This document shows positions 2,327-28,170 of a stretch of DNA of 64,000 nt, in pieces (position 1 is the first letter of the stretch; each line of letters opens with the position of its first letter). The translations under genes were made by a program, and so were the position numbers. The notes under the pieces were generated by a model. The model saw only the letters and a program-made list of their open reading frames with translations. It searched no databases and was not told the DNA's origin. Origin of the DNA: Antedon mediterranea (taxonomy: Eukaryota > Echinodermata > Crinoidea > Comatulida > Antedonidae); NCBI RefSeq assembly GCF_964355755.1, contig NC_092673.1:17117001-17181000 (forward strand), given 5' to 3'.

Positions 2327-2495
2327 TCGAAAAGGATATTCCATCTGCTATTGCTGTTCATGGTACAGACATTAAGGAAGCTTACACTAAGGCCTTGAAA
2401 GAGGGATCTGTCAAAATCAATCTCGGAATGCTTAAAGTGATTGGACAGGAAGGAGTAGGTAAAACATGCCTCATAAATGCCTGTCTTGGAAAGAA
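2327..2495 (+). CDS. exon: Roc domain start with P-loop (G1)
   Basis: Acceptor TTATCAG at 2326, donor GTAAGT at 2496. It encodes a leader helix (DIKEAYTKALKEGSVKINLG) followed by the Walker A / G1 motif GQEGVGKTCL, which fits GxxxxGKT. The helix before the P-loop is typical of Roc domains in invertebrate Roco proteins. It ends in phase 2 and needs one base from an upstream exon. Confidence 0.85.
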
Positions 2496-5400
2496 GTAAG
2501 TACTAGTTAAAGGACAGTGAAATGAACTATGAAATATGCGTGTTAACTATTAAACAAGAAATATTTCTTACAAAAAACGCTGCTCGCTTATTGAAAAATA
2601 TTTTTTATTTCAAATGTTTTTGAATGTGTCATTTTATTCTCACATACTGTAATAGTTATTTTACCTGAAAAAATGTAATTTAAAGCAACAAATACTTAAA
2701 TTGTCTGTCAGACAATGGTTTTTGGGTTTCTTTTCTTTTTTTATATGTGAATAAATATTATTTTTTTGTTACAGAAGTGAATACTCAATTTCTGTCACTT
2801 TAGTTAATTTTATTGCTAAGGTCAAATCTGGGGGTCACTAGGTCACCCTAGATATTTCAATTGTGAAGTATCCTATTACAAACACAAACTTTAATGGACT
2901 GTTTCGATAATAATTCAATGAATATCTGACAGTGAATATACCAGATGACATGTCCTAATAGACTCTTTCCCAGACGTTTTTTGGGTCTACTGTAGCAGCT
3001 AGAATCAATAAGTCATAGTGGAGTTTCCATTTTCACAAAACTGTCTGTCCTTAGAACTATAACTGCTGCTTGCTTTAGCTTCTGATTGAGAAGTCCTAAT
3101 GGGACGTAGCGGGCTAGAGCAGCAGCGTGAAAATTATGATTCATAATGTTTACAGCACGTAAAATTGACCCAAGTTCAGTGTTGGTTTCAAATGATTTTC
3201 ACTTCAGATTTAGCCCAAGCATAATGTTTACAGCACTAAGTGACTCAAGTTCATTATTGGTTTCAAATGATTTTCACTTCAGATTTAGCCCAAGCATAAT
3301 GTTTACAGCACTTAAAAGTGACCCAAGTTCATAATTGGTTTCAAATAATTTTCAATTCAGATTTAGCCCAAGCATAATCTTTACATCATTTAAAAATGAC
3401 CCAAGTTCACTATTGGTTTCAAAATAATGTTCACCTCAGATTTAGCCCACAGCACTTAAAAGTGACCAAAGTTCACTATTGGTTTCAAATGATTTTCACT
3501 TCAGATTTAACCCAAGCATATTAATGTTTACAGCACTTAAAAGCGACCAAAGTTCACTATTGGTTTCAAATGATTTTCACTTCGGATTTAACCCAAGCAT
3601 AATGTTTACAGCACTTTAAAAGTTCCACATATTGATTTCAAATTATTATACTTCAGATTTGAGAAGGAGCATAAAGTTACAGATGGCATAGCAGTGATAA
3701 GAACTGTAACCACAACATGGACAGAAGATTATGACGATAGTGGTAAACATAAATTAATTTAGCTTTAGTATTTTTGTTATCCTTCTTGCAGTGAATTATG
3801 ATAAACTATTAACAGATAAATTGGAGATCAATACCTCTACTGACATACAGTAGTATATTGTTGGATACTGTATGTTGATATGAACAGTCAAGTAACTTGA
3901 CTGATTTCTGCATGATTTTTTTTTCCATAATAAATATTAACATTAGGAACTCCCAGATCGGTAAAATTATTCCGTTGACTACCTAAATTTAAGTTTCAAT
4001 ATTAACCACTAATTGATGTTTAGTTCCATTCCAAAATTGTTTATATCTACTAAGCTATCTTCTTTGTTTTCTACTCTTACTCCACCCTCTATTAACCAAC
4101 CTGAGCCACCTTTGTTTTTATTTCTTTTATTCCAGTATATATATTTCATGCAATTTAATCATCAAATATCAAGTTATTCACTTAAATCAAACCTAGGGCA
4201 TACAGAAATGGAAAACTTTGTTTTTTGTTTTTTTCAGGTAATCCCTCAAAACAGTATACAAAAGTTGTCGCTGACAAACTGAGAGCAAAGAAAACTGAAA
4301 ACGTATGTCAACAACATTTTATTAAAAACATTAAAATAATACAAAGGGAATTTCTACCATTATTACTAGCCAAAACTGAAGGCTATATTTTGTTCATGAT
4401 CAATGGGACTTTAAGTGGATAGTTTTCAATTCTTTTACAATCAAATCAAAAATAATGTGTTTTGGAAAGTAAATGTATTTTCTATTATATTAAGGTAAAT
4501 TAGAAGAACATTAATATCTTCTGTGACTATTTATAAGTTTTGTGTTCATTTTATGTGTTAGGTTGTTCAGAAACCCCATACAGATGATGTTGGGGTCTAC
4601 GATGATGATGTTAATCACAACAATAATGATATTAATAGTGATGACAACCACAACAATGATATCCAAAACAGTGATATCAATTACAACAATGGTGATAATG
4701 AAGACAACCACAACAATGATGACAACCACAACCACAACAATGATGACGACAACCACAACAATGACGACAACCACAACAATGATGACAACCACAACAATGA
4801 TGACAACCACAACAATGATGACAACCACAACAATGATGACAACCACAACAATGATGACAACCACAACAATGATGACAACCACAACAATGTTGACAACCAC
4901 AACAATGATGATGACAACAACCACAACAATGATGATGACAACCACAACAGTGATGACAACCACAACAATGATGACAACCACAACAATGATGACAACCACA
5001 ACAATGATGACAACCACAACAATGATGACAACCACAACAATGATGACAACAACCACAACAATGATGACAACAACCACAACAATGATGATGACAACCACAA
5101 CAATGATGACAACCACAACGATGAAAATGATGACAACCACAACAATGATAATAATCATGAAAAACAGAGCAGTGGTAATGATTATTTTTTTGTAACTTTT
5201 TTAAACAATAGTTGTAAAAATGATGTAATATCGATGATAAACCTCTTTAATGACTGTAATATAACATGTGCAATCCTGGGAGTTAATTGGAAGGTAATAC
5301 TGTATCAGCTGTATTAGAAATGTTATTGTTCTTTACAAGAAGTAATAATTATTAGTTACAAATTAATTTGTATTTCTAGTAGAAGTATTTTATAACCTGA

Positions 5401-8400
5401 CTAAAGGACTAAAGAATTTAATTGTATTTATATGATTAAATTCAAGTAAAATAATCACAACTGCTATACAATTTATAAAGAATGAGTACAACAGAGATAA
5501 TGATAATTGTACGCACGCGCTCCAGAGATCAAATTGATACGCCCTTAACTTTAAATATATGGATTATATATATGGATTTACAAAGCGGGATCTCAGGAGA
5601 CATACTTTTACATATATAAACATCACAGGCACATAATAAATTCTAAACAGCCCGGTGATATACTGAAATTTAATTAATTAATTTGAAACAATAAAGATGA
5701 GGAAATCTATGCATGATAAGGAGTGCATGTGGTGTATTTACAACAAAAATCTGTTTTAGCTACAGGTACTGGCATTCCTGTTGATACAGATCAGCAGTTA
5801 GATAAAGATGTAATTCAGGATATTGAGGAAAATAAGGAGGAAACCTTGAAAGACACGTTTAACATCTGGGATCATGGCGGACAATTGATATACCATGGTC
5901 TACATCGTGTAAGTTATGATATATGTATTTTTCTGTTTATTATACATGGTATTCATAAACATAATAGTAACATTATTATTGATATGCAGCCATTGCTCAA
6001 ATATCTGCACAAAGGCTCTGTAAGAAGTATTCAATTAGTTCAATACAAAAACTACAGTATGTTGGCAGTTTGACTGAGAAATGTAGTAACCTATGGAAAT
6101 ACAAATATACAGTTCATTTTAGTGAAAAAATCTTGCTAGTATTTACTTACTTGTCTTCTCATCTGCCACTTGGAAGGTACATGACAGTCGTCTTCCTCCA
6201 CACTTCTATTTAGTGCTGCTTCTTTTAGTTCAGATTATGTATTTATATTGTTTACTCTATCTAGAATATCTATCCTTTTCCTTTCTCTTCTTTTACCACC
6301 ATATCTTTTCTCTCACAATTTTTAGTAGTCCTTTAATTCTATGTCATATTCCTTTGCTATCCTTTTTATTTGCCTTTCCTCTATCTCAATCAATATGTCA
6401 TCATTCTCTTCTGTGCTGAGTATGTTGTGTTTTTAACATTTTTCTCAAGCACCACATCTCAAAAGCATTAATCGTGCATACTTCTTTATCTGTCGTCCTG
6501 TTTCACATCAATACATACTGCAGGTGACACACATGACTTTAGTTTTTCTATATTTGATATTTATTTAATAATTGTTTTATGCTTCATTTATTCTATCCAT
6601 TAGTATTATTATTCTTTGACAATTCACTTTTAAAAGCTAGCCAAAAATTGCTATTTACAGTAATCTTTTTATGAAAAATGATTTTGTTTTTAATCTGTAC
6701 AAATTATAGTTTTTTAGGTGACTTATTGTATAGCTTTAGGAAAATTTATGCAAAAATATTGTTTATGAATTTGTACCAGAGAAGAAGTGTTGCCTAGAAA
6801 GAGTAATACAAATTGTATTTATCAGTTTAATCAGTAAAATACTTGCTTCTTGCAGATGTTCATGACATTACAAGCACTTTATATTGTAGTGTTCGATCTC
6901 AGTGTAGACCTTGAGAAGCGTGCTATTGTCATTGATCCTAATGGAGTAAGTATTTCTAGGCCATGTAAAGTAATATATAGTATTGTAGTTATTGTGGTGG
7001 AAAAGTCTTCTTGAAAAAAGACATATTCTATACATTGCAAAGACTTCTGTTCAAATATTTTGTTACCAAGCTAATCGTGGATAAAATCATTAAATTGTGT
7101 GATTTTATTTTTTCAGGTTAAACGTGAACATCATTGGTCCAACCTCCAGTTCATATTATCTTACATCCTGTCAGTTTATTCTCATAGTCGTATTTTGGGA
7201 AAAAACAAAGCAAAGGGAGTTCACAAACCAACTATCCTTATTGTGGGTACACATACGGGTAAGCTTGGTAAGACTGAAAAAGAACAAAATGATGAGGTAA
7301 TACTACTACTTCTATGTTTACGTTTACTGAAATTATTAACTAGCAAGAATACATTGCAGGTTTATAAGCAAATTAATGTAAAGAAACTGACAACTGGAAT
7401 AGTGTATCAATTAATTTATATATATTATTATTTATTATAATTCATAAAGAAGTTTTTGAATATTAATTAGAATAAATTACAGTAAATTGACCCATGTCCT
7501 ACATTTTTTATTATTAGTCAAAAAAGGTATTTAAAAAGCTTCGACATGCACTTAGAGAGAAAGTGTATGAAGAACATGTCTACCACAAATATTTTGCCAT
7601 CGAAAACAGTGAAGAAACAACAGATGATAGCTTTAGTGAACTGAAAAAGGTTATTGATGAGTTTATGTTAGATTTAGAAAAGCTTGTTCCTTTGAAGTGG
7701 ATGCGTTTTCGATGTGACATACATAAACTAAGGAGAGAAAAACACTTTTCTTTGTGTCCTGTTGAAGAGGTAAATTTACGTTAGTGTTTTGTTTTCAGAA
7801 TAGAAATGTGTTGAAAATAATGAAATCTAAAAAAGCATAAACAAGAGAATCTTCCCACAAAAACAATATTGATTGCTAATATGGTCCTAATCATGTCTGA
7901 AAGAATCATGAGCCAGACCACTTGTAATACCTGGAATATTCACTGCAATGTTACCTCAGTGATGGCGCCAGGGAGGGTTAGTTGGCTACGGGGGCTCTAG
8001 CCCCTGGTCGGGGAGCCTAGAATATGCCCCAGCAACCACTACAGCAAAATTATGTTCACGATCTATTGTTTGTCTGTTCACCAATTTTTTAATTTACAAT
8101 TAACCCTTGGAGTACCTAAAATACACATTTCACTGTATGCCTACATTTTTAAACAAAAAAAAACATTTTATTTTCGTTTAGCCAACATCTTTATTTAAGT
8201 TATTACATACTTACTTACATATTTCATTAACTTCTCATCGTACAATATGGTACGCACGCATATACATCTTGGAAATAAACTGATTTCACCTATGGAAAAT
8301 GGTCTATACTTGCGGATGCATTCCCCTCCAAATAAAAGCCAAATTGGCCACCTTTTTAGGCCTCTAGGCCTGATATTTTTTAAATATAAGTGTCATTTTT

Positions 8401-11400
8401 GTAGATTTGCAGCTCTAGTTTTCAAAATTTTCATTTCGTTTCATATTTCGAAGTATACAGTCAGTGCATTGTATAGGGACCTAAGAGCTCTATTTTTTTT
8501 TTTAGCTCAGTCCCAACCATGAGGTAGGGCTGGTCCTGGAGAAATATATATATATTTTATATAATCAAAAGATTTTATCCTGTAAAGGACAACAATGTTG
8601 TTACAAATGCATACCTACCTATGATTTCATATTTTATTTAAATCTGAATAGTAATAACATTTTTCTTTAGCTTAAAATGCTAGCAAGTGAGAATGGTATT
8701 GCAGATGAATCAATCCTTCTTACCTTCCTGTATGATCTTGGTGAAATTGTTTACATGCCTGACAACAAATTATTGACAGATAAAGCAGTGTTAGATCCAA
8801 TGCAGCTAGTGGAAATTGTTACTGCTTTTGTAACAGTCATTACACCTGAAATTCCAGTAAGTAGGTTCATAAAAAATTTAATTCAGTGTTCCTTGGGGAA
8901 TAGAGGTATATGTGAATTCCTATAGGCACTGTAGTATCAAAAGCAATATCTGACAGTTACATAGAGTGGTATATTGCATATTAGATGTGAAATATTAGAT
9001 GTGTATGGGCTAAACTATGTCATTTCATCTATAAGTATTTATCCATATTATGTTTTTTTTTAAACATAATTCCTGCATCCCCTTCAGATTCTAACACAAA
9101 ATTATAAGTATGGCTAGTTAGTGGTGTTTTTTTTTAGCTTCCCATGTTTAGGAAAGCTTTTGACGATGGAAAGAATTTCAAGTTCCTTGTAGCACTGATG
9201 ATTCAATTGGGTTTCATTTGCAAGAGGGAGACAACCAGCAGCCAAGATAGGGCAAGTACATCTACAGTAGGTTTTGTTACCTTATCTTTTCTAACATGTT
9301 TTGCATGCAATATTATGTATAAATAATGATTTTTGGTATGATAAATATATACATTCATTTCATTATTGAAATTTTACATAAAATTTTAAAACATTTTTAG
9401 GCTTCATAAATATTTTGATTAAACTTTCTGCTGAAGATTTTTAAACATGTACAGGAAATGATCTTTAGTTTTCATTAAAATAATTGTAAATGACATTTTA
9501 CAAATCAACAATTTCAGGAATCTGTTGGAAAGCGATCATTTTTTGTGCCACTACGCCTTGCTTTTAAGACATCAAGTGAAGTGAAAGCAGTGCCTGATAA
9601 ATTTCCAGCTATCAGTATCTATTACGACTTTAAGGGATATCTGCCAGATGTATTGTTTCCATACATGATTATTGATTTCCTCAACAAATTTCAAAAGGAA
9701 GGCGTTGACCCAATACTGTCATATAATCATGCTGCACTTTACTTCAACCAAGATCATCATGTGACCTTATCTCTTGTCAAATTTGTGACTACAGAGGATG
9801 AAAGAAATTTCTTGTTAAAGGTATAGGCCTACTGTATCATATATTTTCTTGTGATTATGTCATAATTTAATCTAAGCATCTATATATAAATTATGGTTAA
9901 TTCTGACATAGGCGAGCACAATGCAAAAACTTCTCTACAAATCTCCGCCTTGGATACCTACCTTATCTATCCGAGATGTACCGCCAAACGTAGATTTGAT
10001 AACATTAGTGTGCACGCCGACGCTATTGTTCCATATTTATATCTTAGGAAGATATTATAAAGAGTTTTTTAACAACATTTATGATTTCAACATTGGATTT
10101 TCCTCTCAATTTCAATTCTTCCCGGTCAAAGTAATTTCCGGGTTTAAGATAAGTTCACCTTAGTTTCAAATATTTTCTCTCTTTTATACACAAGGGAGCA
10201 GTTAAAATAATAGATTTGACCCTAAAGGTGACTGGAAACAGGCACTTTCCATCAATCAATACAGTGTCCCTTTGGAAGACGAAAAAAAAATTGGCCATTA
10301 ATCATAGCCATTTCAGTTTTTTGTTTATTTTAAAACATACCACACGTGTGTGAAGGTACAGTAGTTAAATAATAGGAATTGTACTGCAAATTAATAAAGA
10401 TCAAATTAAATATACGCCATAAAGAATCAGAATATATTGTGGGGAATAGTATTATAAAATTACATAGGGAGATTTGATAAGACATTTTTCGAGTGAAATC
10501 CCGATAGCTGAGTTTTATTGAGTAAGCTTGCAGGAATAACTGTAGGCTATCTTCCTGTGTCCCGTTAGGACCGAGATGTCTGCCCATGTTGCAAGCCGTA
10601 ATGTCTTCTTTCTTGGGCCCACTCTGTCACGGCAGTTAGTTTCAAAAGATGATTAAATTAAATAATGTATTAATAATTATTAGGATGGTATTCATTTGAA
10701 TAAACGCCTCTCCAATAAAACATCACTTTGAATAATAACCCCCCCCCCCCCCCCACAACCCAACTATCTAATAAACGTCCATCCACATATTTATAATAAC
10801 ACAATTATACTATTTGTAGTAGAATTCACCGCACTGTTATCTGCAATTTACCAAGCATTTGTTATTCTTTTTTACCACTTTTCATATCTATGAGAGGATT
10901 TCATTTGATTATAAATGTTAACATATTATTAGAACTAAAAAATTTAACATATATCCCTCGAATAAGCACCTCCCTCAAATGACCTCCGCCTCCCCAAAGG
11001 GCCCTACCAAACAATAAAAACTATACTTTAAAATGTTATTAATCATCTAAAACACTGTGAAACAAAGTAGTTCAGTTTTACGAATGTCAAGCATTTTCAA
11101 TAATGGTAACCGACAGAAAATGTATAAGGAGAACATTATCATTCCGAGAACCATCGTCTACACTTCCTAGAGGGGGAGCGAGCGAAGCGAGCTCACCCTC
11201 TAGTAAACTCAAATTCAGATATCAAAACATACATTTTCTTCTTTTTTTTCAGGTGACTATTAAAAGAACAAATGCTCTTAATGAAACAAGTAATGAGGAA
11301 CCCTCTTCTGAAGCATGTAAAGAGGTATTGTTTCATCAGTTTGGACAACTATATAATTTTGTTATAGATATTGTTGTTGATATTTGGTTAATAAGTTAAT

Positions 11401-14400: not shown

Positions 14401-17400
14401 GTATTTACTGTATCTATGGTAAATGTTATTGCTGCATACCCCACCTTAACTAGCACCATGGAGCTAACTCCAGTGATTTCAAGATATTTACCAATTACTT
14501 CATGTATTTACTGTATCTATTGTAAATGTTATTGCTGCATACCCCACCTTAACTAGCACCATGGAGCTAACTCCAGTGATTTCAAGATATTTACCAATTA
14601 CTTCATGTATTTACTGTATCTATGGTAAATGTTATTGCTGCATACCCCACCTTAACTAGCACCATGGAGCTAACTCCAGTGATTTCAAGATATTTACCAA
14701 TTACTTCATGTATTTACTGTATCTATTGTAAATGTTATTGCTGCATACCCCACCTTAACTAGCACCATGGAGCTAACTCCAGTGATTTCAAGATATTTAC
14801 CAATTACTTCATGTATTTACTGTATCTATTGTAAATGTTATTGCTGCATACCCCACCTTAACTAGCACCATGGAGCTAACTCCAGTGATTTCAAGATATT
14901 TACCAATTACTTCATGTATTTACTGTATCTATGGTAAATGTTATTGCTGCATACCCCACCTTAACTAGCACCATGGAGCTAACTCCAGTGATTTCAAGAT
15001 ATTTACCAATTACTTCATGTATTTACTGTATCTATTGTAAATGTTATTGCTGCATACCCCACCTTAACTAGCACCATGGAGCTAACTCCAGTGATTTCAA
15101 GATATTTACCAATTACTTCATGTATTTACTGTATCTATGGTAAATGTTATTGCTGCATACCCCACCTTAACTAGCACCATGGAGCTAACTCCAGTGATTT
15201 CAAGATATTTACCAATTACTTCATGTATTTACTGTATCTATTGTAAATGTTATTGCTGCATACCCCACCTTAACTAGCACCATGGAGCTAACTCCAGTGA
15301 TTTCAAGATATTTACCAAATACTTCATGTTTTTACTGTATCTATTGTAAATGTTATTGCTGCATACCCCACCTTAACTAGCACCATGGAGCTAACTCCAG
15401 TGATTTCAAGATATTTACCAATTACTTCATGTTTTTACTGTATCTATTGTAAATGTTATTGCTGCATACCCCACCTTAACTAGCACCATGGAGCTAACTC
15501 CAGTGATTTCAAGATATTTACCAATTACTTCATGTATTTACTGTATCTATTGTAAATGTTATTGCTGCATACCCCACCTTAACTAGCACCATGGAGCTAA
15601 CTCCAGTGATTTCAAGATATTTACCAATTACTTCATGTTTTTACTGTATCTATTGTAAATGTTATTGCTGCATACCCCACCTTAACTAGCACCATGGAGC
15701 TAACTCCAGTGATTTCAAGATATTTACCAATTACTTCATGTTTTTACTGTATCTATTGTAAATGTTATTGCTGCATACCCCACCTTAACTAGCACCATGG
15801 AGCTAACTCCAGTGATTTCAAGATATTTACCAATTACTTCATGTATTTACTGTATCTATTGTAAATGTTATTGCTGCATACCCCACCTTAACTAGCACCA
15901 TGGAGCTAACTCCAGTGATTTTAAGATATTTACCAATTACTTCATGTTTTTACTGTATCTATTGTAAATGTTATTGCTGCATACCCCACCTTAACTAGCA
16001 CCATGGAGCTAACTCCAGTGATTTCAAGATATTTACCAATTACTTCATGTATTTACTGTATCTATTGTAAATGTTATTGCTGCATACCCCACCTTAACTA
16101 GCACCATGGAGCTAACTCCAGTGATTTCAAGATATTTACCAATTACTTCATGTATTTACTGTATCTATTGTAAATGTTATTGCTGCATACCCCACCTTAA
16201 CTAGCACCATGGAGCTAACTCCAGTGATTTCAAGATATTTACCAATTACTTCATGTATTTACTGTATCTATTGTAAATGTTATTGCTGCATACCCCACCT
16301 TAACTAGCACCATGGAGCTAACTCCAGTGATTTCAAGATATTTACCAATTACTTCATGTTTTTACTGTATCTATTGTAAATGTTATTGCTGCATACCCCA
16401 CCTTAACTAGCACCATGGAGCTAACTCCAGTGATTTTAAGATATTTACCAATTACTTCATGTATTTACTGTATCTATTGTAAATGTTATTGCTGCATACC
16501 CCACCTTAACTAGCACCATGGAGCTAACTCCAGTGATTTCAAGATATTTACCAATTACTTCATGTTTTTACTGTATCTATTGTAAATGTTATTGCTGCAT
16601 ACCCCACCTTAACTAGCACCATGGAGCTAACTCCAGTGATTTCAAGATATTTACCAATTACTTCATGTTTTTACTGTATCTATGGTAAATGTTATTGCTG
16701 CATACCCCACCTTAACTAGCACCATGGAGCTAACTCCAGTGATTTCAAGATATTTACCAATTACTTCATGTTTTTACTGTATCTATTGTAAATGTTATTG
16801 CTGCATACCCCACCTTAACTAGCACCATGGAGCTAACTCCAGTGATTTCAAGATATTTACCAATTACTTCATGTTTTTACTGTATCTATTGTAAATGTTA
16901 TTGCTGCATACCCCACCTTAACTAGCACCATGGAGCTAACTCCAGTGATTTCAAGATATTTACCAATTACTTCATGTTTTTACTGTATCTATTGTAAATG
17001 TTATTGCTGCATACCCCACCTTAACTAGCCCCATGTAGCAAACTCCAGTGATTTCAAGATATTTACCAATTACTTCATGTATTTACTGTATCTTTTGTAA
17101 ATGTTATTGCTGATATAAAAACAAGCTACTCAGCTGCTCTTGGCACATCGATCTGAAAGTGCATGAATTGTTTATGGTGAAATCAAAGTAAATAATGGCT
17201 AAAAGCAGTGACTTTCAGAAAAGAACTGAACTCATCAATTATAAATCATGCGCTGACAATAATAAAGATAAAATGGTAAAAAAACAATGTCAGTGTAAAA
17301 TCTTAAATAGGGACCCTGAGCTAGTAGTTTTAAACTTGTTTACAATTTAAAAAAAGGTTATTGTTGTTTACAATTTTTCATATATCTACTACTTTTTAAG

Positions 17401-20400
17401 ATGGAAGAAAACCTCCAAAGAAAGAAGAATCAAACCAAGGTAAAGTAGACATTAATTATGTGTGCCAAAATGGGCATCAATTGTCTTATTCTTATCGAAT
17501 AATATTCAAATATTAACTGGGTTTAACTGGTTCAAAGATCAAGGTGATCAATTTCACAAATAATCACCAGCCATTGTCATTAGTTTAGAATAATGATAAA
17601 CAAAAACAAACTGTTATAAACACGGAGCTACAAAAGAAATGGTCTATATGGTCTGTCTTTCGTAAATTTAATCAAAAAACCACAATTTGACTATTTTTAT
17701 TCAGGTATAAATTATTTGGTTTTCAATCCAATTTTTGATCAAACTCAAAGTGAATAGCTATATGTGACATTAAAATGGCACAAAAAATGTTTAAACATTG
17801 TTTTTCAGACTAAATATCTTTAATAATATCTGTTTTTTTAAAGATCTTTTTAGAAATTGTTACTTCTTTCATTCTACTTGTAATAATATAGATGAAGCCT
17901 CTGACATTTTTGTGCATGTTTTTAAAACCTGAATTATATTGATTGTATGTCTTTGCATAATATAGACATCTCAGATGAGGATTTCTGGCAACTGTTGACT
18001 GATACAGCAGAGTGGTATGATCGACTTGGATATCTCAAGAAATTGAAACTTTTATACAAAGACCATCTGAAGAAATCTAGAGTGGAGGTGGAGAGAGCTA
18101 ATAGTGTTTGGGATCTACTACATGATTTAACAGCCTCTGGAAATTTGAGTCCATCAAACCTTACTCTTCTATATGACACAATTAAGATAACCGAGCAATT
18201 TGGCTTTAGGTCAAATGTTGAGAATCAACCTTCAGAAGATATTAAGGATCATGTGGTATCATCGATGTTGACACCTTTCAGACAGAATATTTATCAGCTG
18301 GGAGAAGAACTTAAAGAGGATGAAGTATCAAAACTTGATTTCCTCTACAACAAACAATTTGTAAAGAGATATTCAGACAGCTGGAGTTTGATTATGGACT
18401 TTGAACATAAAGGGATCATTGATGAGGATTTCACAAAAATGATCAAATTTCTTGATGTTTTAGAAAGAAATGGAATGACATGGGCCAGAAAGATTTTCTT
18501 TGATGGTTGGTTGGTTTATTTGTTTTTAGTTCATCATCATGGTTCATTGTTAAAACATATAGTACATACTGTAGTACACTTCAATCAAGTAAAAGTATTG
18601 TAACCAATTAAACATTTTAGGCAGATTCAAATTATTATGATGTCCCTGTCTGTCTGCTATTATAGTTGATTAAGGATATCAACCAACATTCAGTTAAATG
18701 GCAATTAGGCTGAATTGAATGACAAGTTAGTAAAATAACAATAATATGCTCAATGAGTCCAATGGAAAATGAACTGAACTGAAAAGTGTGTGTGTATTCC
18801 ATGATATTATCCCTATACATCAGATTGACCCAAACCTTTGAAACATAATAATCTGCATTTTAAATTTGTGAATGCCTCTAAATTCCTATAAAACCCAGTA
18901 TACCATTTGAGGGTCAAATTAGTACCGACTCTGAGGCTGATTCAGACCTTTACTAATGCAAGAGGATCATTAAGTTGTATAAGAAAGCCACAGGTTGAGA
19001 GCATACCCATCACCACCTCAGTGCCAATTTATGCAGCCGGACACTTAAACCATTATAAACTTTTTAGGCAGATTCAAATTATTAGGATGTCCCTGTCTGT
19101 CTGCTATTATAGTTGATTAAGGATATTAACCAACATTCAGTTAATTGGCAATTAGACTGAATTGAATGACAAGTTAGTAAAATAACAATAATATGCTCAA
19201 TGAGTCCAATGGAAAATGAACTGAACTGAAAAGTGTGTGTGTATTCCATGATATTATCCCTATACATCAGATTGACCCAAACCTTTGAAACATAATAATA
19301 ATCTGCATTATAAAATTGTGAATGACTCATAATTCCTGTAAAGCCCAGCATACCATTTGAGGGTCAAAGTACCGACTCTGAGGCTGATTCAGACCTTTAC
19401 TATTGCAAGAGGATCATTAAGTTGTATAAGAAAGCCACAGGTTGACAGCATACCCATCACCACCTCAGTGCCAATTTATGCAGCCGGACACTTAAACCAT
19501 TATAAACTTAAGTTTAGATTATATGGCAGCATAAATGTTGTAAAATTATAGAGATCAACACTTCTGCCTATCCCAGTTTATTTACATTTCCTAATTAAAA
19601 AAAAGTTTCTTTGTGTCAATGACAATTAGCTTACTGAAACACTTCTTTTAATCATCATCCATCCTACTGTAGGTGGATTGAAAAATCCAGAAGTCATCCA
19701 GTAGTCATACTCTACATAATTATATGTATTCTAAATGTATATGTCTTCTGGTACAGGCATGTCTTTTGGTACTGGCACATCTAGGTCTTATGATGCAAGT
19801 GTGTCTTCTGGTGCAGGCGCATCTTCTGGTGCAGGTGTGTCTTCTGATGCAGGTGTGTCTTATGGTGCGTAAAAAAACAACATTTCCCGCACAATTTCAC
19901 ATAAATATCTGTATTCTGACAGATTTGCAAAATTTGTAGTTAACATATTTTAGACAAACTTCCCAAACAAAAGTTGCGGAAAGAAGTATAAAGAAAAAAA
20001 AAGAAATCTTTATAATCACAATGGAACCAATCAAGTTGATGATATAACTATTTATTACACCTAAGTATATTCTTGTCATTTTATTGAACAATTGGGTCAC
20101 ATGATGTAAAAATAACTGAACTAAATGTTATATACAATACATGTACTGCAATTTTGCGGTGGAAATTACTATTTAAATCTTTTTGCTATTTTAGGTTATT
20201 TAAAGTTGATGCTTATTTTTGCTTAACAATAAAAATGAATGAAATGAAAATTAATGTTGGGACTAAAAAATTGATGGTATATTTAACCGCTCTATACCTT
20301 TAGATTCAGACTTGCATCAAGATCACTATAGCCGACTGAAAAAAAACATAGCATCCTTAGGTTTAACAGAAAGAAAGAATGTTTCCGGAGACGGCAATTG

Positions 20401-23400
20401 CTTTTTCTATTGCATACAAGATCAATTGGAAAGAATGCAACTGCCTGTACAACCTGTAGCAAACATGAGAACTGAAATTGTAAACTTTTTGCAACAATTG
20501 GTGAGATTAAAACTTTATACAATACTATACAATAAATGTGCAATAAAACATTACTATTATAGGTGTTAATTATTAAACTCTTTACATATTTCAGGATAAC
20601 AACGACCCACTTAAGGAACATGTAAATGATCATTACCTACATAACCTTGAACAAGATGGAACTTGGGTTGATGAAGTTGCAGTGCGTGCAATGGCCAGGG
20701 TTCTCAAATGCAACATAAGGATAGTTACAAGCCAGAAACAAAGTTCTGAATCTGGATATTTGTTCAATGACATCAAAGGAAATTTGAACTCTGATGACCA
20801 GCAGCTTCTTCTTGGTCTGATAGATGAAGATCATTATGTTAGTTTAGGTAGGATATATGGACCTCTAGATCCCCCGAAATTGTTGTACTCTTATACTTTA
20901 AAAATGTCAGTACCATTACTATTTTGGGGTTATTGTCACCGGCTAGTCATCCATTCATAGAAGTACTAATGTAGTAGCCTACCTGTACGGTGACCATAGA
21001 ATGTGACCCGAGGCATGACTAACTACGACTTTTAGATGATAGAAAGTTGAGAAAAAATGTTACGAGTAGTTGTACGACATGAAGATGTTTATGAAATTAT
21101 GTCAATAATGTTTACACACTAGGCATACAATAGTAATATTCTTAAGGGGTCATGGTACAGGATTTGGCACTTAAGAATTACGTTTTCTCGGTGGGGTAAA
21201 CGTACTTATTGTATTGCCCAAGGTTATATTGATGTACTCGATTATGCTAATTAAAATGTTAATTAGCGCTAATTAATGGCTTTCTTAAGTGGACTATAGG
21301 TACAGGAGTTGACACTTAAGAATGACGGATCTTCAATTAGACTCTAAAAATAAACATTTTTGCATTGTTTCACATGTGTACTCATTATGTTAATTAAGTC
21401 TAGGTGGGACATATATTGATCTTTGACCCTTTCTTAAGGGGTCATGGTACAGGATTTGGCACTTAAGAATTACGTTTTCTCGGTGGGGTAAACGTACTAA
21501 TTGTATTGTCAAAGGTTTCATCGATGTACTCGACCATGCTAATTAAAATGTTAATTAGCGCTAATTAGTGGCTTTCTTAAGTGGACTATAGGTACAGGAG
21601 TTGACACTTAAGAATGATGGATCTTCAATTAGACCCTAAAAATAAACATTTTAACATTGGTTTCATTTATGTACTCAATTATGCTAATTAAATCAAATTT
21701 TGGGGTATTTTGAGCGCCCCTCCCTAGAGTTGGTACAGGGGCGGGAACTTAAGAACGGCCGTTTGATGGTCCCTGGACCCCACTTGACATATTCTATGCC
21801 TCAGACCTTTTGTACTCGCAATGCTAAACAAATCTTCATGGGCTCCCGGATTATACTAGTAGAATCATTATTGATAATCTATACGTTGTTACAACATGCT
21901 GTTATTAGCTGTGATATCTTCATTCCTCTTACCAGTAGTAGTACTATCAGAATCATTATTGATAATCTATACATTGTTACAACATGCTGCTATTAGCTGT
22001 GATATCTTCATTCCTCTTACCAGTAGTAGTACTATCAGAATCATTATTGATAATCTATACATTGTTACAACATGCTGCTATTAGCTGTGATATCTTCATT
22101 CCTCTTACCAGTAGTAGTACTATCAGAATCATTATTGATAATCTATACATTGTTACAACATGCTGTTATTAGCTGTGATATCTTCATCCCTCCTACCAGT
22201 TGTACTAGCAATTTATAATTTATTTAATAATGTCAAGATAGTTAAAATTAAAACAAATGTTAATGTTGGAAGTTCAATGTTTAAATAGGCCATATATTTA
22301 TAAAAACATATTCTTATATTTTAATAGGTAATATATAATTTTATCTTTCAAAAACTTGTTTGTGTATTAATAGTTTTAAGTACAGTATTACAATAGTTTT
22401 TTCTATGGAAAGACTTTAATATGTGGATAAGGTTTGGATTATCACTACAATGCAAGAACGTAGACACAACATAAGTAATTTGACCAATGACAAGTGAAGG
22501 ATTGGATAGGTCTCATATTAGCTGTGTATTGCAACCTATATCTTTGTATTGCATCCATGTGAGATGCTCAAGTGATTATAGTTAAACAATGTATGCAGTG
22601 GAACTGTCAATATTCCACCACAGACTGTACAATGGCATTGTGTACTATAAACTTTTTTCTAATTAGTAAATGTACATCTCATTTTAATCATTTTTAGGCA
22701 GTGATGATAAGGACCAAAATGAAGGCACATCATCCAGTCACCAATCCACACCAAGAGAAGGTAAGTTACTAGTGGATAAAGATTATGATATGAGAAAGTC
22801 TCTCAACCTTACAACTTTACTTCCTTTATGAAAACACATGGTGTACTGGTAACCTGACTTTACTAGTGTTTATTTGCACTCTGCACACCTTCAAACAATA
22901 TATAATATAATAATAAAAACCTTTAAACAATATAATCATATAGTATAGTATGCAACACAAGAACGTAGGCACAACATAAGTAATTTGACCAATGACAAGT
23001 GAAGGATTGAATAAGCTCAGATGAGCTGTCACTTGTTGTAGATTACTCGCATAGCAATTTTATCTTTGTGCTCAAGTGATTAGATAGGTAAACATTGTAT
23101 GCAGTGGATACCTCTTGTAAGTCCCCCCTCCCCCTATCAGCTGAATCCGTCATAAGCAGACACCTCTATAAAATACTTTTTCTGGACCCAAGGATGTCCA
23201 CTTATAGAAGGTTAAACTGGAATATTTTTTATTTTATTTGCAGATGAAATTGGGCCAACGAAAAGAAAAAGAAGAAAAACAGGTCAAGGTGATTAATTGA
23301 AATTAGTATATTTAAACTAAATAGACATAATATACATAATAAACTAGTAATCAAGTATTTGCCTTTGTTAATGCCAATGACTAGTGCTTTTTATTTTAGC

Positions 23401-24682
23401 AAAAGATAATTTATCAATGTTCAAAGGCAACAACAGAACTCGCTGTCGACATAATTCAACAGCACAGACAATTGTAAAAAGGCATTGTGTACTATAAATA
23501 TTTTCCTAATTTGAAATATACATCTTATTTTGATCCTTTTTAGGCAGTAGTGATAAGGACCAAAATGAAGGCACATCATCCAGTCACCAATCCACACCAA
23601 GAGAAGGTAAGTTACTAGTAGATAAAGATTATGATACGAAAAGAGTTTCTCAACCTTACAACTTTACTTCCTTTTGGAAACACATTTTATATACGCCTAA
23701 CCTGACTTTACTAGTGTTTATTTGCACTCTATGCAAACCTTTAAACAATATAATCATATATTATAGTGATGATGATATGATACTGACAAAGAAATTGATG
23801 TTTAAATGATGAATTTCTAGGATTATATTATTATATAATAAAAAGAATAATACTAATTATTAACATAAGATAACAAAATAATGGGAATGGTATTTAGTTT
23901 TACTGTTATTTCTAAAGCTGATTATAAGGTTGTGCATGTAGAACATTATTTCTATAAAAAAAAACAAGCGAGACAAGGTAGTTAATTCTCCACAATTTAT
24001 TTTAACATTTTATCAGGTGATTATTTGATCACACCTGTGGTCAAAAACGTTTGTGATCACATTTTAAAATAAACTACCTTGTACGTACTTTTTTTTTGGA
24101 TATTACATATTTTCGTATGCAGCATCATTTATATATTATTTCATAATATTGGAACTTTTTTTCAACCATATAGATTTCTCAGAGGATGATTTTAGACAGT
24201 TGATTGCAGACTTTGCAAAATGGTTTGATGATCGTGGTCTCCTTAACAGACTACAAGTTCTATTCATAGAAATGGTAGACGACATTGAAGAGTTGAAAAG
24301 GGTTACCAGTACAACTGAACTGTTAGCTCTTTTATCTGCGAATGGGCAATTGAGTCAAACAAATCTGTCTGTACTGTATGATGCAATAAAAGTAACTAAA
24401 CAATTTGGCTTTCAGTCAGTCAATAGAGAAAAGCTTCATCCTTTCAAAAATATCAAGAAGCGTAAGGTAGCTTCATTTTCAGCACACACAAAAAAGATTT
24501 TTAATCTTGGAAAAAGTATTAGTGATTCAGATGTAAAAACTCTTGATGGGCGATACAACTTCCCTGTCCTTAAGGGGTATACTGACAGCTGGAGTTTAAT
24601 TTTGGATTTTGTTCCTCGAGGGTTGCTGAGTAAAGACAAAATTAAATCTGTTAAGAAGATGTTGAAAGATGAGAAAAAGTAG
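2327..24682 (+). CDS. composite Roc-COR / DED-DED / OTU / DED-DED gene (22 exons joined)
   Basis: Exons joined by eye: 2327-2495, 3657-3742, 4238-4302, 4562-5174, 5760-5908, 6856-6945, 7117-7296, 7518-7769, 8671-8856, 9138-9266, 9518-9820, 11253-11324, 12008-12221, 17401-17439, 17966-18505, 19757-19864, 20304-20500, 20595-20847, 22698-22760, 23244-23288, 23544-23606, 24174-24682. All have GT/AG borders and matching phase, giving about 1,441 codons. The 5' end is missing: the first exon needs one base from an upstream exon. Roco proteins (Roc GTPase plus COR) are GTP-regulated signalling scaffolds; DEDs oligomerise with other DED proteins; OTU domains cleave ubiquitin chains. Inference: a ubiquitin-editing death-domain platform. 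The joins across 12222-17400 and 18506-20303 are the least certain, and two or three adjacent genes remain possible without transcript data. Confidence 0.7.
2496..3656 (+). other. intron with dispersed repeat and exon-derived minisatellite
   Basis: 2553-3133 shares its left end (CAAGAAATATTTCTTAC) and right end (CCCAGACGTTTTTTGGG to GCTAGAGC) with 51329-53573, so it is one dispersed element family. 3146-3656 is the minisatellite described separately. Confidence 0.55.
3146..3656 (+). repeat. minisatellite of about 71-86 bp, ~7 degenerate copies, abutting an exon
   Basis: Copies begin near 3146, 3222, 3298, 3377, 3449, 3520 and 3600 with words CATAATGTTTACAGCAC, CCAAGTTCACTATTGG and TTTTCACTTCAG. 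Each unit ends in a splice-acceptor-like TTCAG followed by ATTT, the same arrangement as the true acceptor at 3656. The start of each unit resembles the start of the exon at 3657. Confidence 0.8.
3657..3742 (+). CDS. exon: Roc domain, switch I region
   Basis: Acceptor ACTTCAG at 3650-3656, donor GTAAAC at 3743. It reads KFEKEHKVTDGIAVIRTVT and on to WTEDYDDSG. In Roc domains the segment after the P-loop helix holds the switch I Thr before a Gly-Ile strand; VTDGIAV occupies that place. It ends in phase 1. The minisatellite upstream appears to derive from its first ~40 bases. Confidence 0.75.
4238..4302 (+). CDS. exon: short linker in the Roc domain
   Basis: Acceptor TTTTTTCAG at 4237, donor GTATGT at 4303. 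It encodes GNPSKQYTKVVADKLRAKKT plus EN, a charged helix-like segment with no motif I recognise. It accepts phase 1 and ends in phase 0, which fits both neighbours. The 495-base intron before it (3743-4237) shows nothing else. Confidence 0.65.
4562..5174 (+). CDS. exon: Asn/His/Asp hexapeptide-repeat insertion inside the Roc domain
   Basis: Acceptor GTGTTAG at 4561, donor GTAATG at 5175. The frame carried over from 4302 reads VVQKPHTDDVGVYDDD, then about 24 copies of an 18-bp unit coding NHNNDD with Asp/Asn length variants, then NNHEKQSSG. All length changes are multiples of three. The block sits between switch I and the G3 motif, so the product would carry a ~200-residue low-complexity, highly hydrophilic loop in its GTPase fold. 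Poly-Ile/Val and poly-Thr/Met readings in other frames are artefacts of the repeat. Confidence 0.75.
4690..5150 (+). repeat. in-frame 18-bp minisatellite
   Basis: Unit CAATGATGACAACCACAA, about 24 near-identical copies with extra GAT or AAC triplets. It lies within the exon at 4562-5174, so copy number would change protein length without shifting the frame. Confidence 0.9.
5175..5759 (+). other. intron
   Basis: AT-rich; I see no other gene, repeat array or RNA in it. Confidence 0.6.
5760..5908 (+). CDS. exon: Roc domain with G3 motif
   Basis: Acceptor CTGTTTTAG at 5759, donor GTAAGT at 5909. It ends in FNIWDHGGQLIYHGLHR. The WDHGGQ is the G3 / switch II element, which in most Roc domains is WDxAGQ followed by a Tyr-rich strand. 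A second in-frame acceptor (ACAG at 5765) would drop two codons. Accepts phase 1, ends phase 0. Confidence 0.85.
5909..6855 (+). other. intron
   Basis: AT- and pyrimidine-rich with no gene supported. The pyrimidine-rich 6150-6430 gives a short spurious open frame. Confidence 0.6.
6856..6945 (+). CDS. exon: Roc domain core strand
   Basis: Acceptor TTCTTGCAG at 6855, donor GTAAGT at 6946; phase 0 to 0. It reads MFMTLQALYIVVFDLSVDLE and continues to DPNG. The hydrophobic strand ALYIVVFDLS matches the strand after G3 in Roc domains (usually ...YLLVFDLS). Confidence 0.85.
7117..7296 (+). CDS. exon: Roc domain with G4-like motif
   Basis: Acceptor TTTTTTCAG at 7116, donor GTAATA at 7297; phase 0 to 0. 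It includes NLQFILSYILSVYSHS and the strand PTILIVGTHTGK. That strand sits where Roc domains have VGTHxD, the guanine-specifying G4 motif. Here the Asp is not visible at the usual place, so nucleotide specificity may differ. Confidence 0.85.
7518..7769 (+). CDS. exon: Roc-to-COR transition
   Basis: Acceptor TTATTAG at 7517, donor GTAAAT at 7770; 84 codons, phase 0 to 0. It reads KKVFKKLRHALREKVYEEHV, then FAIEN (fits the end of a Roc domain), a helix, and LVPLKWMRF, which matches the (I/V)PxxWxxF opening of COR. Confidence 0.85.
7770..8670 (+). other. intron with repeat fragment
   Basis: Around 7960-8035 is a GC-rich patch with a small foldback (GGGGGCTCTAGCCCC), unlike its AT-rich surroundings, probably transposon-derived. 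Nothing coding is supported. Confidence 0.5.
8671..8856 (+). CDS. exon: COR domain
   Basis: Acceptor TTTCTTTAG at 8670, donor GTAAGT at 8857; 62 codons, phase 0 to 0. FLYDLGEIVYM followed by AVLDPMQLVEIV matches the COR pattern FLHxLGxIxYF...VxLxPxWLxxxF. Confidence 0.85.
9138..9266 (+). CDS. exon: COR domain
   Basis: Acceptor TTTTTTTTAG at 9137, donor GTAGGT at 9267; 43 codons. FKFLVALMIQLGFIC fits the COR helix ..LLxLLxxFxxxC. The donor was chosen because it is the one giving phase 0, required by the next exon. A GC donor at 9252 is a weaker alternative. Confidence 0.75.
9518..9820 (+). CDS. exon: COR domain, C-terminal half
   Basis: Acceptor ATTTCAG at 9517, donor GTATAG at 9821; 101 codons, phase 0 to 0. 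FFVPLRL, YYDFKGYLPDVLFPYMI and HAALYFNQDHHVTLSL match the later COR region (xxPxLL; F.G.LPxGLFxRLI; beta strands after it). Confidence 0.85.
9821..11252 (+). other. intron with mobile-element debris
   Basis: 9913-10165 can be read in two frames without clear homology and is not called. 10741-10754 is a run of 14 C's. 10680-11030 (TAATAAACGCC words) resembles, in the opposite orientation, 53570-53760. 11167-11203 is a 37-bp hairpin treated separately. Confidence 0.45.
11167..11203. repeat. 37-bp CTAG-bounded hairpin
   Basis: Arms of 13 bases (CTAGAGGGGGAGC and GCTCACCCTCTAG, one mismatch) around the loop GAGCGAAGCGA. The hairpin at 44313-44349 has the same length and the reverse complement of this loop. 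Confidence 0.7.
11253..11324 (+). CDS. exon: COR C-terminal strand and linker
   Basis: Acceptor TTTTTTTTCAG at 11252, donor GTATTG at 11325; 24 codons (VTIKRTNALNET..., acidic end). Phase 0 to 0 links the exon at 9820 to the one at 12008. Confidence 0.7.
11325..12007 (+). other. intron
   Basis: AT-rich; no feature supported beyond short A and T runs. Confidence 0.6.
12008..12221 (+). CDS. exon: Cys-rich tail of the COR region
   Basis: Acceptor TTTGTAG at 12007, donor GTAACT at 12222; phase 0 to 1. It reads LLTIQKSF, then a cysteine cluster YERCILCECSN...DCQHEKLTC. Several Roco proteins end COR with a CxxC-type cluster; whether it binds metal is unknown. The next exon, at 17401, lies beyond the satellite. 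Confidence 0.75.
12372..17108. repeat. 103-bp intronic satellite, 46 copies
   Basis: Period 103 bases, measured at 12474, 12577, 12680 and onward to 17109, an exact multiple of 103. The first unit is one base short. Units start GCTGCATACCCCACCTTAAC and differ at a few sites (CATGTTTTTAC/CATGTATTTAC, CAATTAC/CAAATAC, CTATTG/CTATGG). Each holds a small foldback TGGAG-CTAA-CTCCA. There are no unique spacers, so it is not CRISPR. It occupies most of the intron between the COR and DED exons. Confidence 0.97.
17401..17439 (+). CDS. micro-exon: basic linker
   Basis: Acceptor CTTTTTAAG at 17400, donor GTAAAG at 17440; 39 bases, phase 1 to 1. It codes DGRKPPKKEESNQ, a Lys-rich linker similar in place and composition to the exon at 23244-23288, which also precedes a DED pair. 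Confidence 0.6.
17440..17965 (+). other. intron with MITE relic
   Basis: 17685-17825 resembles parts of the repeat family at 55153-55487 and 56114-56410 (AATTTTTGATCAAA..GTGACATTAAAATGG words). Nothing else is seen. Confidence 0.45.
17966..18505 (+). CDS. exon: tandem DED pair 1
   Basis: Acceptor ATATAG at 17965, donor GTTGGT at 18506; 540 bases, phase 1 to 1. First DED: FWQLLTDTAEWYDRLGYL, LKLLYKDHL, WDLLHDL, GNLSPSNLTLLYDTIKI. Second DED: FRQNIYQLGEELKEDEVSKL, DFLYNKQF, WSLIMDFEHKGIIDEDF, KMIKFLDVL. Both follow the DED helix order, with the Leu-rich helix 2, the W/L-F/L helix 5 and the G-x-(I/L)-(S/D)-x-(D/E) turn. It is closely related to the pair at 24174-24682, so the module is duplicated within the gene. 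Confidence 0.85.
18611..19510. repeat. ~447-bp tandem duplication (two copies)
   Basis: Copies start at about 18611 and 19058; the word GGCAGATTCAAATTATTA recurs 447 bases apart and the copies stay nearly identical to about 19510. It is intronic and non-coding. Confidence 0.85.
19757..19864 (+). CDS. exon: Ser/Gly/Ala repeat linker
   Basis: Acceptor GGTACAG at 19756, donor GTGCGT at 19865; 108 bases, phase 1 to 1. It codes GMSFGTGTSRSYDASVSSG and then (A/V)SSGAG-type repeats. It is a flexible linker before the OTU domain. The repeated TCTTCTGGTGCAG word supplies several in-frame alternative acceptors. The acceptor has a poor pyrimidine tract. Confidence 0.5.
20304..20500 (+). CDS. exon: OTU protease, catalytic Asp/Cys half
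   Basis: Acceptor ACCTTTAG at 20303, donor GTGAGA at 20501; phase 1 to 0. VSGDGNCFFYCIQDQL is the OTU signature (xxGDGNCLFxxxxxQL) with the catalytic Asp and Cys, followed by the helix MRTEIVNFL. OTU domains are cysteine proteases that remove ubiquitin. Confidence 0.9.
20595..20847 (+). CDS. exon: OTU protease, catalytic His half
   Basis: Acceptor ATTTCAG at 20594, donor GTAGGA at 20848; phase 0 to 1. TWVDEVAVRAMARVLKCNIR matches the OTU WGxxxElxAlaxxlxxxIxI block, and DEDHYVSL supplies the catalytic His (HYxSL). With the preceding exon it gives a near-complete OTU core of about 150 residues and all expected catalytic residues. Confidence 0.9.
21143..21720. repeat. two ~290-bp tandem copies rich in CTTAAG
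   Basis: The start word CTTAAGGGGTCATGGTACAG occurs at 21143 and 21433. Internal words CGGTGGGGTAAACGTACT and GTACAGGAGTTGACACTTAAG recur at the same offset. Confidence 0.85.
21861..22200. repeat. 88-bp tandem repeat, four copies
   Basis: AGAATCATTATTGATAATC recurs at 21861, 21949, 22037 and 22125. Short open frames across it are artefacts of the repeat. Confidence 0.9.
22698..22760 (+). CDS. micro-exon: acidic/Ser linker, copy 1
   Basis: Acceptor ATTTTTAG at 22697, donor GTAAGT at 22761; 63 bases, phase 1 to 1. It codes SDDKDQNEGTSSSHQSTPRE. An almost identical copy, including its downstream intron, is at 23544-23606. That only the 63 coding bases and flanks are conserved supports it as an exon. 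Confidence 0.7.
23244..23288 (+). CDS. micro-exon: basic cluster, possible nuclear-localisation signal
   Basis: Acceptor TATTTGCAG at 23243, donor GTGATT at 23289; 45 bases, phase 1 to 1. It codes DEIGPTKRKRRKTGQ; KRKRRK fits a monopartite nuclear-localisation signal. Nuclear entry is inference. Confidence 0.6.
23544..23606 (+). CDS. micro-exon: acidic/Ser linker, copy 2
   Basis: Acceptor CTTTTTAG at 23543, donor GTAAGT at 23607; phase 1 to 1. It codes SSDKDQNEGTSSSHQSTPRE, one residue different from the exon at 22698-22760, as a product of a local segmental duplication about 846 bases apart. Confidence 0.7.
23974..24083. repeat. short MITE-like hairpin
   Basis: CAAGGTAGTTAATT...TTTATTTTAA on the left pairs imperfectly with TTTTAAAATAAACTACCTTG on the right, within an intron, just before the last coding exon. 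Confidence 0.6.
24174..24682 (+). CDS. last exon: tandem DED pair 2 and stop
   Basis: Acceptor CATATAG at 24173; stop TAG at 24680-24682. First DED: FRQLIADFAKWFDDRGLLNR, LQVLFIEMV, LLALLSANGQLSQTNLSVLY, DAIKVTKQFGF. Second DED: TKKIFNLGKSISDSDVKTLD, WSLILDFVPRGLLSKDKI, VKKMLKDEKK. It resembles the 17966-18505 pair almost position for position. No AATAAA is seen in the next ~100 bases, so the true 3' end is not placed. Confidence 0.88.
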
Positions 24683-28033: not shown

Positions 28034-28170
28034 ATAGCCAACAATAAGCCAGCCAACAATAAGCCAGCCCACTTATTTTTTCCAGCCAACAATAACTATG
28101 AAACGCAGTTTGTGCATTCTTTACATTTTCATTGTTACTTATGGCTTTTATAGTATTAGGAATTAAATAT

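What the first reader, a model, noticed from the sequence alone, without database searches (positions are those of the whole stretch)
2327..24682. A GTPase scaffold, four DEDs and an OTU deubiquitinase appear joined in one reading frame
Twenty-two exons joined in matching phase encode Roc-COR, a DED pair, an OTU core with its Asp/Cys and His motifs, and a second DED pair. Roco proteins, DED adaptors and OTU enzymes are each known families; I know of no described protein with all of them. If real, it would put a ubiquitin-removing enzyme on a DED scaffold under a GTP switch. That is a plausible self-contained death/inflammation module.
Basis: partly seen in the sequence, partly recalled or inferred. 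Interest (0 to 1): 0.85.

Follow-up and report, generated by a model that had tools for sequence, protein, structure and literature searches.

The report
Roco gene with swappable death-domain tails
This is one copy of a large animal gene family in which a GTP-switch core is followed by interchangeable death-effector tails, and this copy also carries a ubiquitin-removing enzyme module, though no transcript yet shows that all parts end up in one protein.

Summary
The parts are real and in order. Twenty-one exons at 2327-24682 have canonical splice borders and matching phase at all 20 junctions: Roc, COR, DED pair A, OTU, DED pair B. The gene belongs to a big family: 58 strong matches to one COR exon, itself included. 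In the C4 cluster, 28 of 39 COR copies have a same-strand DED-pair exon within 15 kb downstream (5 of 39 upstream; shuffled mean 6.3, maximum 14). So Roc-COR-DED is well supported. The DED exons fall into interchangeable classes; of the 39, only this locus shows two. The OTU module was found in two Roco loci: here and in a near-identical duplicate at C4:18.26 Mb, again after DED-A. A relative on C3 follows a nuclease-type domain. The DED-A to OTU join is the weak link: its donor scores lowest of the chain, and a repeat with its own ATG between them could start a separate gene. This copy also has a TGA in the exon before Roc and lacks 22 COR residues present in the duplicate. Best reading: a Roco gene with stacked tail cassettes, alternatively spliced, one an OTU deubiquitinase. 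Novelty: new variant of a known kind.

The parts
1..412 (+). DED-pair exon of class C (begins upstream, at L024 position 7882), TGA at 410-412; the same frame then reads KRAHNIL to a donor at 434/435
   Evidence: (48% to the class C query, C4:17116942-17117409)
2327..2495 (+). Roc exon with P-loop (GQEGVGKTC), phase 1 in
3657..4302 (+). Roc exons 3657-3742 and 4238-4302
4562..5174 (+). low-complexity Asn/Asp/His exon made of an 18-bp repeat inside Roc
5766..7296 (+). Roc exons 5766-5908 (WDHGGQ), 6856-6945, 7117-7296
7518..9820 (+). COR exons 7518-7769, 8671-8856, 9138-9266 (66 bp shorter than in the duplicate), 9518-9820
11253..12221 (+). post-COR exons 11253-11324 and 12008-12221
12372..17112 (+). 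intronic tandem array, 103 bp x 46 (97 copies in the duplicate)
17401..17439 (+). short linker exon, phase 1-1
17966..18505 (+). DED pair A, single exon, phase 1-1
19741..19868 (+). 18-bp repeat with ATG (MSSGTGMSFGTG...) and a phase-1 donor-like end: possible first exon of a separate gene
20304..20500 (+). OTU exon 1 (DGNC), phase 1-0
20595..20847 (+). OTU exon 2 (DHYVSL), phase 0-1 if spliced
22698..23606 (+). linker exons 22698-22760, 23244-23288, 23544-23606; those at 22698 and 23544 match linkers in L025, where they follow COR
24174..24682 (+). DED pair B, terminal exon, TAG stop

Best explanation
The locus is one copy of a tandemly expanded animal Roco (Roc-COR GTPase) family whose C-terminal tails are exchangeable exon cassettes entered in intron phase 1: DED-pair classes A, B, C, D, a possible membrane-helix exon, and here an OTU protease module. 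Shown: the exons, the phases, the recurring COR-then-DED order, and the mosaic kinship of cassettes. Inferred: the copy is transcribed; the OTU cassette is spliced in frame behind DED-A in at least some transcripts, with DED-B as a further or alternative tail. Inferred function: GTP-dependent dimerisation of Roc-COR brings DED pairs together to seed DED assemblies of the caspase-8/FADD type, and the tethered OTU removes ubiquitin from proteins gathered there, tuning death or inflammatory signalling.
For: 28 of 39 strong COR copies in the C4 cluster have a same-strand DED-pair exon within 15 kb downstream and 5 of 39 upstream; within 7 kb it is 18 and 0; shuffled mean 6.3, maximum 14 of 3000, for 15 kb. 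With the DED hits alone, 15 of 58 COR copies within 16 kb downstream, 3 of 58 upstream. OTU follows DED-A in both Roco loci that hold it. Mosaic kinship: COR exon 9518-9820 is 99.0% identical to the duplicate and 92.1% to L006, but DED-A is 82.5% to the duplicate and 96.1% to L006; the linkers (95.2 and 98.4%) and DED-B (88.6%) match L025/L023, whose COR exon is only 79.9%. Window versus duplicate dN/dS 0.43 over 16 exons (two of them aligned in part), OTU 0.45, no stops in aligned codons (significance not tested). Of 25 class-A exons at 66-100% I compared 18; all 18 keep GTTRGT at the exon end, 17 found by script and L007 by eye. DGNC and HY motifs are read directly (that they mark the OTU active site is recalled); OTUD3 and OTUD1 are the nearest solved structures. 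Caspase-8/cFLIP tandem DEDs top the fold search, best E 0.017, on a poor model.
Against: No transcript data. The DED-A donor in this copy scores 3.03, below each of the 18 reference donors (4.0 to 11.6, the same ones the matrix was built from), at the 76th percentile of 1448 GT sites. The acceptors of DED-A (1.24) and DED-B (0.61) also score low. The conserved GGTTRG could also be a terminal Gly codon followed by TGG or TAG. AATAAA stands at about 20228, between DED-A and OTU, and again at about 21349 and 21641, after OTU. The C3 relative ends its OTU exon with a stop shortly after HYVSF. This copy has a TGA before Roc and lacks 22 COR residues. The OTU counts are small (7.0 synonymous, 13.0 non-synonymous), and OTU versus C3 gives dN/dS 0.74.
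Confidence: 0.5

Rival explanations
1. Two or more genes: a Roco-DED gene that ends at or after DED-A, and a separate small gene whose first exon is the ATG-bearing 18-bp repeat (19741-19864) spliced to OTU, with or without the DED-B tail.
For: The repeat starts with ATG and ends at a phase-1 donor-like site (read by eye) in the window, L002, L005 and L006; in the window it scores 3.84, above the DED-A donor. A copy of it (L004 ~1789) lies at the first-exon position of the duplicate's Roc gene. In the duplicate, OTU exon 1 is open upstream to an ATG (MNEMKINVGTEILMVYLTTLDSDLHQ). AATAAA lies between DED-A and OTU. On C3 the OTU relative is not near any DED hit (each capped at 150 rows): none is listed between C3:3.66 and 7.80 Mb.
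Against: In the window the ATG-led OTU frame is broken (MNEMKINVGTKKLMVYLTALYL*). An 18-bp repeat can keep all frames open, so its open frame is no sign of coding. In L030 the same repeat is interrupted by an insertion of about 1 kb and its donor-like end has lost the G.
Confidence: 0.3
2. One reading: one constitutive protein Roc-COR, DED pair, OTU, DED pair (a narrower form of the best explanation).
For: 21 exons, 20 of 20 junctions in phase, canonical borders; the OTU exon 2 donor TAG|GTAGGA scores 4.98, 92nd percentile.
Against: The tail cassettes share phase-1 borders, so any subset would also be in phase. In L025/L023 the linker and DED-B tail follows COR without DED-A or OTU. Weak DED-A donor. 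Exons were chosen because they fit.
Confidence: 0.25
3. A decaying copy: the pieces were stacked by recombination and make no working product.
For: TGA at 410-412 where L028 and L004 read on in frame; in-frame 66-bp lack in COR-A, taking it below the Pfam cut-off; weakest donor at DED-A.
Against: In the aligned parts of the 16 exons compared with the duplicate there is no stop and no gap except one of 3 bp in DED-A (and the 66 bp just named); combined dN/dS 0.43.
Confidence: 0.15

Closest known systems
[quoted passage not shown]
   Same: Roc-COR GTPase core with a death-superfamily domain C-terminal to COR (DAPK1 layout recalled; reviews seen only in the listing)
   Different: DED pairs instead of one death domain; many copies with exchanged tails; OTU module. 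Kinase and ankyrin domains were not looked for beyond the pieces scanned
Aplysia ROCO-bearing TLR, TIR and MyD88-like proteins, PMC9334734 (passages read)
   Same: Roc-COR in proteins of innate immunity, one of them a MyD88-like protein with a death-like domain
   Different: TIR-based; the terms 'death effector' and 'OTU' had no occurrence in that text
Bacterial AP-GTPase (Roco) conflict systems of Kaur et al. 2021, PMC8195603 (passages and section 15 read)
   Same: Roc-COR constant core with a variable C-terminal effector position; many paralogs in one genome, each with a different effector
   Different: Here an animal genome, exon cassettes in phase 1, DED pairs as tails. 'OTU' had no occurrence in that main text
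Brown-algal LRR-ROCO genes with exon shuffling, PMC11378527 (abstract and passages read)
   Same: Large ROCO family diversified by shuffling of same-phase exons, alternative splicing, proposed immune role
   Different: There the N-terminal LRR exons (phase 2) are shuffled; here the C-terminal DED/OTU exons (phase 1)
Caspase-8 / c-FLIP tandem DEDs
   Same: Two DEDs in one unit of about 175 residues; top fold hits, weak sequence hits E 0.025 and 0.027 for pair A
   Different: No significant sequence match in the PDB (pair B none at E up to 1); attached to a Roco core
OTUD3 / OTUD1 OTU deubiquitinases
   Same: OTU by Pfam; phmmer E 3.3e-4 and 1.4e-3; DGNC and HY motifs
   Different: Lies here with DED pairs in a GTPase locus; linkage type and activity unknown
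C3 locus with an Exo_endo_phos exon and an OTU (L003)
   Same: Closest OTU outside the duplicate (64% amino acids), same phase-0 intron inside OTU, phase-1 entry read by eye
   Different: Preceded by an EEP-domain exon; that the two are one gene is inferred

Membership tests
Roco (Roc-COR) proteins | Roc GTPase domain with P-loop | tested here: met
   Pfam Roc 3.3e-15, 56.8 bits against cut-off 27 on joined exons
Roco (Roc-COR) proteins | COR domain directly after Roc | tested here: inconclusive
   COR-A 31.6 bits, below 35.3, in this copy with 66 bp lacking; 40.9 bits for the duplicate's version (one exon of that version typed with window letters)
DED-pair proteins | two death effector domains in tandem | tested here: met
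   Pair A: Pfam DED 3.6e-12 with two stretches; tandem caspase-8/cFLIP DEDs top a low-confidence fold search. Pair B is below cut-off with one stretch but 41% identical to A
OTU deubiquitinases | OTU domain with Cys and His of the active site | tested here: met
   Pfam OTU 6.8e-13 over profile 2-116 of 128; DGNC and DHYVSL present by direct reading, their role recalled
OTU deubiquitinases | cleaves ubiquitin | not testable with these tools
   needs an enzyme assay
single Roc-COR-DED-OTU-DED protein | one mRNA holding all parts | not testable with these tools
   no RNA data available
single Roc-COR-DED-OTU-DED protein | phase-compatible exons across every junction | tested here: met
   20 of 20, but any subset of the phase-1 tail cassettes is also compatible

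The most novel reading that the evidence does not exclude
An animal Roco family works as a combinatorial effector system: a fixed GTP-switch core with exchangeable phase-1 tails (DED-pair classes, membrane helix, deubiquitinase), in which this locus makes one chain Roc-COR, DED pair, OTU, DED pair that both builds a death-domain assembly and edits ubiquitin on it.
Probability: 0.25. Interest if true: 0.85.

Novelty: new variant of a known kind. Interest (0 to 1): 0.6.

Why it matters
Roco proteins with variable C-terminal effectors were described in bacteria, and ROCO exon shuffling in brown algae. This genome shows the same logic in an animal, with death-effector pairs as the exchanged part and one capture of a deubiquitinase module. 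It offers a testable case of how innate immune or cell-death scaffolds gain new outputs by exon exchange, and whether a deubiquitinase can be built into a DED platform.

Tried and rejected
A transmembrane exon (L005 3219-3506) was considered as the usual end of DED-A genes. It has 16 matches, all on C4, many downstream of COR copies. But of the five matches other than itself at 68% or more that cover at least 74 of 96 residues, four hold a stop and the fifth lacks the end, and between L005 and L006 it looks no better conserved than its flanks (by eye). Its coding status is open. It was not found in the window.

Reading the 103-bp array as coding was rejected: its 60-residue frames are a by-product of the repeat, and it lies between two exons.

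An EEP remnant in the window was sought and not found (best E 8.3).

The AlphaFold model of DED-A is poor (mean pLDDT 57.3, two sequences), so the fold hits are weak support only.

Taxon: a paper search for feather-star genomes did not identify the organism, and (crinoid genomes) gave nothing I used.

Literature: (open-access library only) listed no paper that I recognised, from titles and abstract starts, as describing a Roc-COR/DED/OTU protein. I read passages of PMC8195603 (plus its section 15), PMC11378527 (plus abstract) and PMC9334734 only.

Full report
What is there. Within 2327-24682 I recover 21 exons with AG acceptors and GT donors (the last ends in TAG) whose reading phase agrees at all 20 junctions. 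The first 13, joined with most of one low-complexity exon left out, give Pfam Roc (3.3e-15) and COR-A (6.2e-7, under its cut-off); the exon 17966-18505 gives two DED stretches (3.6e-12); the two exons at 20304-20500 and 20595-20847 give OTU (6.8e-13); the last exon 24174-24682 is a second DED pair, below the Pfam cut-off but 41% identical to the first. The OTU keeps a DGNC and an HY motif by direct reading, and its nearest solved relatives are OTUD3 and OTUD1. A fold model of DED-A is poor (mean pLDDT 57.3); its matches at ranks 1-26 are all chains from caspase-8 or caspase-8/c-FLIP entries, best E 0.017, none at 0.001 or better.

Chance and the paralogs. Exons picked because they fit prove little, so I used the genome (354 Mb, 18 contigs). 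The COR exon 9518-9820 has 131 matches, of which 58, itself included, are strong (61-100% identity, E below 1e-28). In a cluster on C4 (about 16.0-19.7 Mb), 28 of 39 strong COR copies have a DED-pair exon downstream on the same strand within 15 kb, and 5 of 39 upstream, against a shuffled downstream mean of 6.3 and maximum of 14 in 3000 shuffles; within 7 kb it is 18 of 39 downstream and 0 of 39 upstream. The 52 DED exons are all those that searches list in the cluster; both searches scored only 150 candidates (of 400 and 429), so this is a lower bound, and L038 shows one further copy with a class not in the list. COR followed by a DED pair is therefore a regular gene plan.

Cassettes. The DED pairs fall into classes (my labels). 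Class A follows COR in L006, L007 and others; class C in L036 and L037; class D in L038; class B, through linker exons SDDxDQNEG, in L025/L023. Classes A and B and the OTU unit are entered in phase 1, class C also, by eye. The window copy is the only one of 39 that shows two classes, A and B, within 16 kb downstream. Its parts have different nearest kin among the loci compared: COR exon 9518-9820 is 99.0% identical to the duplicate at C4:18.24 Mb and 92.1% to L006; DED-A is 82.5% to the duplicate but 96.1% to L006; the DED-B exon is 88.6% to L023, whose locus has a COR exon at only 79.9%. This mosaic is what recombination between copies would leave.

The OTU module. Its second exon has four matches in the genome: itself, the duplicate (95%), a C3 locus (64%) and a weak C4 one (36%, surroundings not examined). 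In the duplicate it again follows DED-A. On C3 it follows an Exo_endo_phos exon (3.4e-9) with six matches in the genome, itself included, all on C3; it shares the phase-0 intron inside the OTU and ends with a stop shortly after HYVSF. Window and duplicate differ at OTU by 7.0 synonymous and 13.0 non-synonymous changes (dN/dS 0.45), and by 0.43 over 16 exons (two aligned in part) with no stop; against C3 the OTU ratio is 0.74. I did not test significance. So the OTU is probably under constraint, but the numbers are small.

The weak link. Of 25 class-A exons I compared 18 (window and L006-L022); all 18 keep GTTRGT at the exon end, 17 by script and L007 by eye, and four of them (L016, L017, L018, L022) would read TAG there. 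This fits a splice donor but could also be a conserved end Gly-TGG/TAG. In this copy the donor GTTGGT scores 3.03, below all 18 reference donors (4.0-11.6), while the GTTAGT form of other copies scores 5.36; the OTU acceptor scores 5.91, below all but one of the reference acceptors, at the 94th percentile of AG sites; the acceptors of DED-A and DED-B score lower still (1.24 and 0.61). The matrix was built from those same few sites, so the scores are rough. Between DED-A and OTU lies an 18-bp repeat with an ATG and a phase-1 donor-like end, and an AATAAA at about 20228. A related repeat stands at the first-exon position of the duplicate's Roc gene. This leaves a separate OTU gene possible. OTU exon 2 may also be terminal, as on C3; AATAAA occurs at about 21349 and 21641.

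State of this copy. The exon upstream of Roc is a class-C DED exon, ending in TGA at 410-412 where L028 and L004 read on in frame to the same donor. COR exon 9138-9266 lacks 66 bp that the duplicate has; COR-A is 31.6 bits here and 40.9 in the duplicate's version, cut-off 35.3. These may mean that this copy is damaged, while the duplicate is fuller.

How it would work. Inferred from the recalled behaviour of the families: Roc-COR dimerises with GTP state, DED pairs polymerise with caspase-8/FADD-like partners, and an OTU held on the platform would strip ubiquitin from recruited proteins. None of these steps is shown here.

What is known. Bacterial Roco conflict proteins carry at least 24 different C-terminal domains (PMC8195603, section 15); brown-algal ROCO genes shuffle LRR exons (PMC11378527, abstract and passages); Aplysia has Roc-COR with TIR and, in a MyD88-like protein, a death-like domain (PMC9334734, passages). 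The open-access searches listed nothing I recognised as a Roc-COR/DED/OTU protein; this covers only that library and, apart from the papers named, titles and abstract starts.

Noticed in passing
28168-43008: Two long arrays of a 181-bp satellite in opposite orientation meet near 35673, a palindromic satellite block of about 15 kb.
   Followed up: no
12372-17112 and L001/L002: The same 103-bp intronic array has 46 copies here and 97 in the duplicate locus.
   Followed up: partly
G000 genome-wide: DED-type exons are hugely expanded: three searches reached the limit of 150 scored candidates (of 359, 400 and 429).
   Followed up: partly
G000: Many OTU matches have equal scores and sit in open frames of 716 or about 3000 residues on several contigs, which look like mobile elements carrying an OTU domain.
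   Followed up: no
G000:C3:5915639-6088785: Six matches to an Exo_endo_phos-domain exon lie close together, one of them followed by the OTU relative.
   Followed up: partly
4562-5174: A Roc exon is filled with an expanded Asn/Asp/His 18-bp repeat kept in frame; the open frame is longer in the duplicate (286 against 251 residues).
   Followed up: no
L024 1-962, minus strand: Open frames that read like parts of a retrotransposon polyprotein (recalled motif, not searched) about 7 kb upstream of the window's first DED exon.
   Followed up: no
L030 (C4:18894361-18897000): The ATG-bearing 18-bp repeat is split by an insertion of about 1 kb and lies between a DED-A exon and the Roc exon of the next copy.
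   Followed up: partly
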